DNA from: Chloroflexota bacterium
GTDB taxonomy: Bacteria > Chloroflexota > Anaerolineae > Promineifilales > Promineifilaceae
Direction: 5' to 3'
Length of the DNA stretch: 50,577 nucleotides
Assembly (NCBI GenBank): GCA_018004935.1
Contig: JAGNBF010000053.1
Coordinates: 1-50,577, forward strand
Positions 11,225 to 20,086 of the stretch are shown here, one piece after another. A program made the translations under genes and the position numbers. The notes under the pieces are model-generated. The model had not been told where the DNA came from, searched no databases, and worked only from the letters and a program-made list of their open reading frames with translations. The first letter of the stretch is position 1. Each line of letters starts with the position of its first letter.

Positions 11225-14200
11225 ATGATTGACACAACCGACAGAGCCATCGCCATCGTCGGGTTGGGAGCTATCTTGCCAGATGCAGAGGGGGTGGCGG
11301 CGTTCTGGCAAAATATCCTCGGCAAACGGTACAGCATCAGCGAAACCCCCACAGACCGCTGGTCGCTGGCCGATTATTATGACCCGGACCCCAGAACACC
11401 TGATAAAACGTACAGCAAAATCGGGGGCTGGGTGCGGGGATACGAATTTGATTGGAAGCGGTTTAAGATGCCGCCCAAAGTGGCCGGTTCGATGGATCAG
11501 GGGCAACAGTGGGCGGTGACGATTGCCGCCGATGCCCTGGCCGATTACGGCTACCCCAATCGCCCCCTGGACACGGATCGCACTGCTGTGGTGTTAGGCA
11601 CGGCCATGGGGGGGGAACTCCATTACATCACCAATTCGCGCATTATTTTCCCGGAATATGCCCGTGCCCTGAAGGCCGTACCGGAGTTTCAGCAACTGCC
11701 CGCGGCCGCACGCGAAGCCATTCTCGCTCATTGGCACGATGTCATTGACAACACCCTGCCCCCCATCACCGAAGATTCCATGCCCGGCGAACTACCCAAC
11801 ATCGTCTCCGGGCGGGTCGCCAACGTGCTCAACCTGCGCGGTCCCAACTTCATCACCGATGCCGCCTGCGCCTCCAGTTTTGCCGCTGTTGATGCCGCCG
11901 TGGAACTGCTCACCGAGCATAAAGTGGACGCCGTGCTGACCGGGGGCGTAGACCGGAACATGGGGATCAGCAGTTTTGTGAAGTTCTGCAAAATCGGGGC
12001 GTTGAGTGCCACCGGAACCCGCCCCTTTGGCGACGGGGCGGATGGGTTTGTGATGGGTGAAGGCGCGGCCGCGTTCCTGCTCAAACGTCTCGAAGATGCC
12101 GAGCGGGCCGGGGACAAAATTTACGCCGTCATCCGGGGGGTCGGTGGGGCCAGTGATGGCAAAGGCAAAGGGATCACCGCTCCCAACCCCATCGGGCAAC
12201 AGCTTGCCATGCAAAGGGCGTGGGAACAGGCCGGAATTGACCCGGCTACCGCCACGCTCATCGAGGCGCACGGCACGAGTACCCGTGTGGGTGATGTGGT
12301 GGAAGTGGAAAGTTTGGCGAAGATTTTTGGCGCGGCCGCGGCCCGTTCTATCGCCCTCGGTTCCGTCAAAAGCAACATCGGCCACCTCAAGGCCGGAGCC
12401 GGAGCCGCCGGTCTGCTCAAAGCAACGCTGGCCCTGCACCACCAAATCATCCCCCCCACCCTCAACGCCGCCACCCCCAACCCCAACATTGATTTCGCCC
12501 ACAGCCCATTTTACCTGGCCCACGAAGCCCGCGAATGGCAAAAAAGCAACGGCACACCCCGCCGCGCCGCCGTCAGTGCCTACGGCTTCGGCGGCACCAA
12601 CTTCCACCTGGCGTTGGAGGAGCATGTGCCGGGGATGTTGACGGAGAAGAGGGTGTTTGGTGGGGTTTCGGTGAGTAAGCAGTCAACAGTGAACAGTGAA
12701 CAGTCAACAGTGAGTAGTCAGCAGTCGCCAGAGAAGGGCCAGCATTCACCATTCACCATTCACCATTCACCATTCACAATTCAACCCTCCCCCTTCCGTG
12801 GCATCCTCGCCCTCGGTGCCAAAACACCTGCCGAACTGAAGGACAGGCTGGACAATACGGTGCAACGGGTGGAAGGGGGCTGGACGCCGCCGCTGGAACT
12901 GCCGAAACAGGTGGAGCTTGCGGCCGCGGAACGGCTCATTATTGACTTTGCTAACCACGAGGAACTACTCGACAAAATCCACAAAGCCCAAAAAGCGATG
13001 GGGTTTGACGCGGCTCCGGCCTGGAAAGCGTTGCAGGCGCAAGGTGTTTTCCGGGGTAGCGGCCGCAAACCGGGCAAAATCGCCTTCCTCTTCCCTGGTC
13101 AGGGTAGCCAATACCTCAACATGGGGCGGGAACTGGCCCAGGTGTCCCCCATCGTGGCCGAGATGTTCGCCCAGGCCGACGCCGTGATGACCCCCATTCT
13201 CGGCCAGCCGCTTACCAGTTATCTGTTTGTGACCGATGAGGCCAACCGGATGCAGGCGGAGTTTGCCCTGATGCAAACGGCTATCACCCAACCGGCTATG
13301 CTCACCCTGGACACGGCTATTTACCAGCTTCTGGCCAGCTACGGCTTCGGCCCGGACATGGTGATGGGGCATTCGTTGGGTGAGTATGCCGCCCTGATTG
13401 CCGCCGGAATTATGCCGTTTGCGGATGCGCTGGAGGCCGCGGCCGCACGCGGCAGTGAAATGAGTAAGCTGAGCATGGGGGATAACGGCAAAATGGCCGC
13501 TGTTCTGGCTCCCATTGCTGTGGTCGAACAAACCCTCAAGGAAGTGGGCGGCTATGTCGTCCCGGCCAACATCAACAGCTACAGCCAGGCGGTCATCGGT
13601 GGCAGTAGCGTGGATGTGGATCGCGCCTGCCAGGTGTTCACCGACAAAGGATTCCGCGCCATTCCCATCCCCGTCAGCCACGCCTTCCACACCCGCATCG
13701 TCGCCCCCGCCAGCAAACCCCTGCGCCAGGTACTCGACCGGCTCCGCATTACCCCCGGCCATCTACCCCTGGTGGGCAACGTCACCGGTGAGTTCTATCC
13801 CCACACCGCCGAGGCGATCAAAGACATTTTGGAACAGCAGATCGCCTCACCGGTGCAATGGGTCAAAGGGCTGGAGACGCTGTACGCCGCAGGCGTGCGC
13901 ACCTTCATCGAAGTCGGCCCCAAGAAAGCCCTGAAAGGATTCGTGGATGATGTTTTAGGCCAGAAAGCCGATGTCATCTCCCTCTTTACCAATCACCCCA
14001 AAACCGGCGAACTCGCCAGCTTTAACCAGGCGATTTGTGGGTTGTATGCCGCCGGGTATGGGGAAGTGAAGAGTGAGCAGTTAGCAGTTACCAGTGAACA
14101 GTTACCAGTGAACAGTAAACAGTTACCCATGAGCAGTGAGCAGTTAGCTGTAGAAAGGACAGAGATTATGCAACCAGCAAATGGTTCTGCCTCGGTTCAG

Positions 14201-20086: not shown

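What the first reader, a model, noticed from the sequence alone, without database searches (positions are those of the whole stretch)
12676..17556. Interdomain linkers made of frame-independent heptamer repeats
Linkers between KS, AT, KS and ACPs are built of 7-bp tandem repeats (CAGTCAG, CAGTCTC, ACCATTC). Because 7 is not a multiple of 3, every reading frame of such a repeat gives the same seven-residue cycle ([21 protein letters not shown]), so insertion works in any frame as long as the cycle has no stop. The strand used here is stop-free, while the opposite strand of CAGTCAG contains TGA. The same heptamers occur noncoding at 7925-8202. This resembles the STRR heptamers of cyanobacteria but used as flexible protein linkers.
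Basis: partly seen in the sequence, partly recalled or inferred. Interest (0 to 1): 0.72.

Follow-up and report, generated by a model that had tools for sequence, protein, structure and literature searches.

The report
Heptamer repeat arrays inside core enzymes
In this uncultured bacterium, short 7- and 8-base tandem repeats like those that litter cyanobacterial spacers also sit inside protein-coding genes, including single-copy core enzymes, where they are kept in frame and add repetitive loops and linkers; the giant lipid/polyketide synthase in the window is only the richest case.

Summary
The repeats are real. The 2953-aa PfaA-type synthase (11225-20086, +) carries about eleven 7/8-bp tandem tracts, all between domains. 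Pure CAGTCAG, CAGTCTC and CATTCAC are open in every frame, but 8 of 11 tracts here contain stops in another sense frame, because they also use CAGTGAN and CAGTTAN units.

In a 1.58-Mb genome sample, 88 tracts lie inside 35 genes and all 88 are open in the gene's own frame. CAGTGAN, the commonest unit outside genes, never occurs at the codon phase where it would read TGA (0 of 44, against 67 of 104 at other phases). Stops are therefore excluded phase by phase, and the tracts behave as translated.

They are not PKS-specific. Clean insertions occur in TrmD (53 aa replacing about 5), HisF (40 for 3), HisC (106 for 3), MutS, MenD, MenE and others; TrmD, HisF and HisC were checked and are single-copy. 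Related genera carry different heptamer words at the same TrmD, MutS and HisF loops, while other relatives have non-repetitive sequence there.

[quoted passage not shown] Linker function is incidental.

The parts
11225..20086 (+). Host ORF, 2953 aa, PfaA/PUFA-synthase-like type I synthase (KS-AT-KS-ACPx4-KR-DH)
   Evidence: TIGR02813 1061.8 bits over cutoff 1010.1; Pfam domains
11243..12622 (+). KS1 domain (aa 7-466)
   Evidence: Pfam PF00109/PF02801
12680..12726 (+). Tract CAGTCAA/CAGTGAA, KS1-AT linker, peptide [15 protein letters not shown]; stops in +1 and +2 frames
12743..12783 (+). Tract CATTCAC x6, KS1-AT linker, peptide [13 protein letters not shown]; open in all sense frames
13076..13972 (+). 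AT domain (aa 618-916)
   Evidence: PF00698, TIGR00128
14065..14148 (+). Tract CAGTGAA/CAGTTAC/CAGTTAG, AT-KS2 linker; 5 and 4 stops in the other two sense frames
14231..14271 (+). 8-bp tract ACCAATAC, AT-KS2 linker ([13 protein letters not shown])
14342..15979 (+). KS2 region (aa about 1040-1585)
   Evidence: second ketoacyl-synt stretch, Thiolase_N overlap and 73-82% identity in most relatives' orthologs
16001..16077 (+). Tract CAGTCAG x4 then CATTCAC x6, KS2-ACP1 linker
16166..16269 (+). Tract CAGTNAN then CAGTCTC / CAGTCTCC(8), KS2-ACP1 linker
16274..16510 (+). ACP1 ([10 protein letters not shown] motif)
   Evidence: 351-bp/309-bp tandem domain repeat and PF00550 on a sister copy
16519..16598 (+). 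Tract CAGTCAG/CAGTTAG then CAGTCTCT, ACP1-ACP2 linker
16601..16834 (+). ACP2
   Evidence: PF00550 best stretch aa 1800-1866
16849..16907 (+). Tract CAGTCAC/CAGTGAC then CAGTCTCT, ACP2-ACP3 linker
16910..17143 (+). ACP3
   Evidence: tandem repeat
17157..17258 (+). Tract CAGTNAN then CAGTCTC, CAGTCTCT, ACP3-ACP4 linker
17261..17500 (+). ACP4
   Evidence: tandem repeat
17510..17547 (+). Tract CAGTGAA/CAGTCAA after ACP4
18326..18994 (+). KR domain
   Evidence: PF08659 aa 2368-2590
19235..20068 (+). DH region
   Evidence: PF21089/PF14765 aa 2671-2948
7925..8202 (.). Spacer with the same words: GTGAATG (CATTCAC reversed), CAGTCTC, CAACTGT/TTCACTG (CAGTNAN reversed), not translated

Best explanation
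The tracts belong to a genome-wide population of STRR-like short tandem arrays (words CAGTNAN, CAGTCTC/CAGTCTCY, CATTCAC, CTCAGCA, CAATTCA and the 8-mer CACCAATA). They arise and spread mostly in spacers and occasionally land in genes. Inside genes they survive only (a) in an orientation and frame that stay open, with stop-making unit variants (CAGTGAN at the CAG|TGA phase, CAGTTAG at the AGT|TAG phase) excluded by selection, and (b) at exposed loops or interdomain linkers where a Ser/Gln/Thr/Val/Pro/His-rich extra segment of 10-100 residues does not stop folding. In the PfaA-like synthase the segments serve as ordinary spacer linkers; nothing indicates their sequence matters. Shown here: genome-wide location, depletion in genes, open frame, phase purging, orientation bias, precise in-frame insertion in core enzymes (single-copy for TrmD, HisF, HisC), and recurrence at the same loops in other genera with other words. 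Inferred: that the protein is made with the segment in it, that the segment is disordered and nearly neutral, and that arrays arise by slippage and are spread by copying of existing composite arrays.
For: Tracts at 266/Mb noncoding versus 18/Mb inside genes, in the part of the sample not chosen for repeats (odds ratio 0.068). 88/88 interior tracts open in own frame; 23/28 CAGTNAN coding tracts have no other open sense frame, while 17/25 intergenic ones have no open frame at all. Phase test: CAGTGAN 0/44 at the TGA phase versus 67/104 elsewhere, p about 2e-15. Orientation in genes versus codirectional spacers: CAGTNAN 27:4 vs 6:11, CATTCAC 14:0 vs 6:7, CAGTCTC 21:0 vs 4:3. Clean insertions relative to solved structures: TrmD, MutS (34), MenE (35), MenD (36), HisF (67), HisC (68); only one TrmD, HisF and HisC found in the genome. 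Same loops with other heptamer words in other genera: TrmD and MutS, HisF. PKS linkers hypervariable, some heptamer-made, some Pro/Ala-rich. Composite order CAGTNAN then CAGTCTC or CATTCAC in genes and spacers alike, never reversed.
Against: No expression, proteomic or strain-variation data, and no second genome of the genus. Orientation bias of CAGTCTC cannot come from stops alone, since its 7-mer is open both ways; it may ride with CAGTNAN or reflect peptide preference. In spacers CAGTGAN dominates (53 of 89 units), whose open strand is antisense, yet coding tracts are mainly sense (27:4); stop avoidance alone would not predict this, so peptide-level selection (hydrophilic sense versus Phe/Cys/Leu-rich antisense) or an insertion bias is also needed. 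The predicted 21-bp higher-order periodicity was not seen. The single-sequence AlphaFold run was too poor to show disorder (mean pLDDT 42.5).
Confidence: 0.72

Rival explanations
1. One reading: heptamers are a frame-independent module, inserted in any frame as long as the strand is stop-free, and kept as flexible PKS linkers.
For: Pure CAGTCAG, CAGTCTC and CATTCAC are open in all sense frames; all PKS tracts are interdomain.
Against: Most CAGTNAN tracts are open in one frame only and show phase-specific units; same arrays inside compact single-domain enzymes; orthologous PKS linkers without repeats.
Confidence: 0.08
2. A dedicated mobile or templated mechanism (a transposable composite element, or an enzyme that writes 7-nt arrays) actively inserts arrays, as with Rickettsia palindromic elements.
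For: Composite arrays with fixed order CAGTNAN->CAGTCTC/CATTCAC in genes and spacers; inverted pairs of CACCAATA and CAGTNAN arrays in spacers; words amplified in some lineages, absent in others.
Against: No conserved ends, no target duplication or associated gene identified; unit number and sequence vary freely; different words at the same loops in different genera fit a general process better than one element.
Confidence: 0.17
3. The inserts are removed before the protein acts (intron, translational bypass or intein-like).
For: The inserts interrupt tight loops of essential enzymes.
Against: Stops are purged phase by phase and frame is kept across every insert, unnecessary for RNA-level removal; no intein or intron features seen; lengths vary from 20 to over 300 nt.
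Confidence: 0.03
4. Assembly artefact or pseudogenes.
For: Genome is a draft in 229 contigs; repeats assemble badly.
Against: Frames stay open in 88 of 88 tracts; host genes are otherwise well conserved; independent genomes show other heptamers at the same loops.
Confidence: 0.03

Closest known systems
Cyanobacterial STRR (short tandemly repeated repetitive) heptanucleotides
   Same: 7-bp tandem arrays, several unrelated words per genome, mainly intergenic; the CAGTCAR word itself occurs mostly in filamentous cyanobacteria (STRR described as 7-bp repeats in PMC2670836)
   Different: Here also 8-mers, composite arrays of fixed order, and many in-frame copies inside core metabolic enzymes of a non-cyanobacterial family
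TAACTGA heptamer repeats of Beggiatoaceae (MacGregor 2015, PMC4679880)
   Same: Heptamer arrays; that paper already states that one orientation has stops in all frames while the other is open (LSVISYQ), and that in-ORF copies are of the open orientation
   Different: Those in-ORF copies are few and lie at protein ends; here they are internal, long, and phase-purged in essential enzymes, with recurrence at the same loops across genera
Rickettsia palindromic elements (RPE; Ogata 2000, 2002, reviewed in PMC10969869)
   Same: Repetitive DNA inserted in frame in unrelated metabolic genes, compatible with folding
   Different: RPEs are about 150-bp palindromic elements with a conserved peptide; these are variable heptamer/octamer arrays, in genes almost always a single arm
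PfaA-type PUFA synthases with tandem ACPs
   Same: KS-AT-ACP tandem-KR architecture; passes TIGR02813 cutoff
   Different: Two KS regions, four ACPs with [10 protein letters not shown], heptamer-encoded linkers

Membership tests
Cyanobacterial-type STRR | Tandem heptanucleotide units, several copies | tested here: met
Cyanobacterial-type STRR | Abundant, dispersed, mainly intergenic | tested here: met
   266/Mb noncoding vs 18/Mb inside genes
Cyanobacterial-type STRR | Same word found in cyanobacterial genomes | tested here: met
   CAGTCAR x4 hits mostly Nostoc, Microcoleus, Tychonema, Calothrix; CAGTCTC and CATTCAC arrays practically absent near those hits
Cyanobacterial-type STRR | Common descent with cyanobacterial arrays | not testable with these tools
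   arrays too short and variable
Rickettsia palindromic element | In-frame insertion into unrelated protein-coding genes | tested here: met
   35 genes in a 1.58-Mb sample; Pfam identities
Rickettsia palindromic element | Defined palindromic element of about 100-150 bp with conserved sequence | tested here: not met
   tandem heptamers of variable length; inverted pairs rare in genes (3 of 31 adjacent pairs) though common in spacers
PfaA-type PUFA synthase | Score above TIGR02813 cutoff | tested here: met
   1061.8 vs 1010.1 bits
PfaA-type PUFA synthase | Product is a polyunsaturated fatty acid | not testable with these tools
   no chemistry available

The most novel reading that the evidence does not exclude
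A dedicated, still unknown process in this bacterial family writes or copies 7-/8-nt composite arrays into genomes, and the same surface loops of core enzymes are repeatedly extended by it in different genera, giving a natural and continuing source of new in-frame protein segments.
Probability: 0.15. Interest if true: 0.88.

Novelty: new variant of a known kind. Interest (0 to 1): 0.66.

Why it matters
It shows repetitive 'spacer' DNA taking residence inside essential enzymes on a genome-wide scale in a bacterial lineage outside Rickettsia and cyanobacteria, with a measurable footprint of translation (unit choice by codon phase). It gives ready test cases (TrmD, HisF, HisC with and without inserts in sister genera) for how bacteria gain extra, probably disordered segments, and warns that apparent interdomain linkers in such synthases may be tolerated repeats rather than designed parts.

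Tried and rejected
(1) 21-bp (3-unit) growth steps in genes: lag-21 identity is not higher than lag-14 in coding tracts, nor different from spacers. (2) Sense bias as a general transcription effect: CAGTNAN in codirectional spacers is 6 sense, 11 antisense, so rejected. (3) PKS-specific linker device: rejected by core-enzyme cases and repeat-free orthologs. (4) AlphaFold on the ACP region as evidence of disorder: single-sequence model too poor; not used. (6) Naming the organism: the scan leaves out the window's own genome, so taxonomy was not established. (7) Mazel 1990 and Ogata 2002 full texts are not held.

Full report
What was checked. The window holds one 2953-aa ORF (11225-20086, +) that passes the PfaA PUFA-synthase model, with KS, AT, a second KS region, four ACPs, KR and DH. 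TRF and direct reading find eleven 7-/8-bp tandem tracts in it, all between domains, and arrays of the same words in the spacer 7925-8202. In 0.98 Mb of this genome, lag-7 and lag-8 tracts number 96 and 74, against 11 in Markov shuffles, while other short lags give 16-27. So the signal is real and specific to 7 and 8.

Frame claim. Pure CAGTCAG, CAGTCTC and CATTCAC are indeed open in every sense frame. The actual tracts are mixtures. CAGTGAN, the commonest unit in spacers (53 of 89), is closed in every sense frame as a pure array and open in antisense; CAGTTAG is also closed. In the PKS, 8 of 11 tracts have stops in another sense frame.

Genome-wide test. I took 1.58 Mb of this genome; part was chosen because it held CAGT arrays and is kept apart for densities. 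Genes were called with a home-made codon-usage caller, which recovers the window's main ORFs. In the unbiased part, tracts lie at 266/Mb outside genes and 18/Mb inside. In all, 88 tracts lie in the interior of 35 genes; all 88 are open in the gene's frame. Of 28 CAGTNAN coding tracts, 23 have no other open sense frame; of 25 intergenic ones 17 have no open frame at all. Unit choice depends on codon phase: where CAGTNAN reads CAG|TNA, units are CA 26, TA 18, GA 0, AA 0; at the other two phases GA 67, CA 25, AA 7, TA 5 (p about 2e-15 for GA). The simplest cause is selection against stops in a translated frame.

Orientation. CAGTNAN 27 sense / 4 antisense in genes versus 6/11 in spacers between codirectional genes; CATTCAC 14/0 versus 6/7; CAGTCTC 21/0 versus 4/3. 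The four antisense cases are of the TTCACTG type. Words open on both strands are used in both directions in relatives: GGAGATG in TrmD of G001 and an inverted CAATCTC pair in HisF of G014. Stop avoidance alone does not explain why CAGTGAN-rich tracts are mostly sense; peptide character may matter too.

Which genes. Not PKS alone. Pfam places tracts in MenF, MenD, MenE, a GT-B glycosyltransferase hinge, a ParA-kinase-FHA linker, MutS, TrmD, HisC, HisF, UvrD-type helicase, MoeA, GH42, PurL, MetH, GltB, an MmeI-type methylase and a molybdopterin oxidoreductase. Against solved structures the inserts are clean: TrmD aa 76-128 replaces about 5 residues of 3ky7; HisF 141-180 replaces 3 of 4evz; HisC 202-307 replaces 3 of 8bj4; MutS about 371-405. 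TrmD, HisF and HisC each appear once in the genome.

Relatives. In orthologs of other genera the same TrmD, MutS and HisF loops carry other heptamers (GGAGATG, GACCGAG, AAGGCAA, CACCCAT, CTCAGCA, TTCAGCC, CAATTCA, CAAGCCG) or short plain loops; the HisC loop is plain in every relative seen. PKS linkers behave alike: heptamer-made in G021, G034, G005, G023 and G024, Pro/Ala-rich in others, of similar length. The CATTCAC array is confined to this family in the sample (277 hits here, 14 of 59 genomes counting this one, none outside the family); CAGTCTC is likewise family-limited.

Array grammar. CAGTNAN precedes CAGTCTC or CATTCAC in genes and spacers alike, never the reverse; inverted pairs (CACCAATA 14, CAGTNAN 8) are common in spacers, with 3 inverted pairs among 31 adjacent pairs in genes. 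This hints at copying of composite arrays, but no mechanism was shown.

Comparison with the known. CAGTCAR arrays elsewhere are mostly cyanobacterial, matching STRR. MacGregor (PMC4679880) already described the stop/open orientation logic for TAACTGA heptamers, with in-ORF copies mostly at protein ends. RPEs of Rickettsia are the closest precedent for repeats in many metabolic genes (PMC10969869), but those are defined palindromic elements. What is new here is the combination: heptamer arrays, internal and long, in single-copy core enzymes, with a codon-phase footprint and recurrence at the same loops across genera.

Limits. Draft genome, unnamed; about a fifth of it sampled; no strains, no proteome; structure prediction uninformative. 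Statements on disorder, neutrality and origin are inference.

Noticed in passing
whole window (93 copies) and genome sample: The 8-bp palindrome GCGGCCGC (NotI site) occurs 2429 times in 1.58 Mb, against about 73 expected from a second-order Markov model: a HIP1-like highly iterated palindrome with a different sequence from cyanobacterial GCGATCGC.
   Followed up: partly
11114-11204, 22388-22499, 23335-23458, 25021-25178, 26800-26848: Spacers around this operon hold 8-bp arrays, mostly as inverted pairs (TATTGGTG... then CACCAATA...) that could form long imperfect hairpins; 14 such inverted pairs in the genome sample, none inside genes.
   Followed up: partly
16274-17500: All four ACP copies read [10 protein letters not shown], with Thr where the phosphopantetheine-bearing Ser of the usual GIDS motif is expected.
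   Followed up: no
L297:3901-5307 (HisC): A 106-residue heptamer/octamer array sits in a tight loop where relatives have only a few residues, the most extreme insertion seen.
   Followed up: yes
L339 (HisF of G014): An inverted pair of CAATCTC-type arrays is translated through within one gene; this word is open on both strands.
   Followed up: no
2118-2329: Perfect tandem duplication of a 105-bp unit just upstream of the ORF at 2328-3095.
   Followed up: no
35786-35864: 12-bp/36-bp in-phase repeat GAACATGCTCAT within the ORF 35504-36379, probably a His/Met-rich stretch.
   Followed up: no
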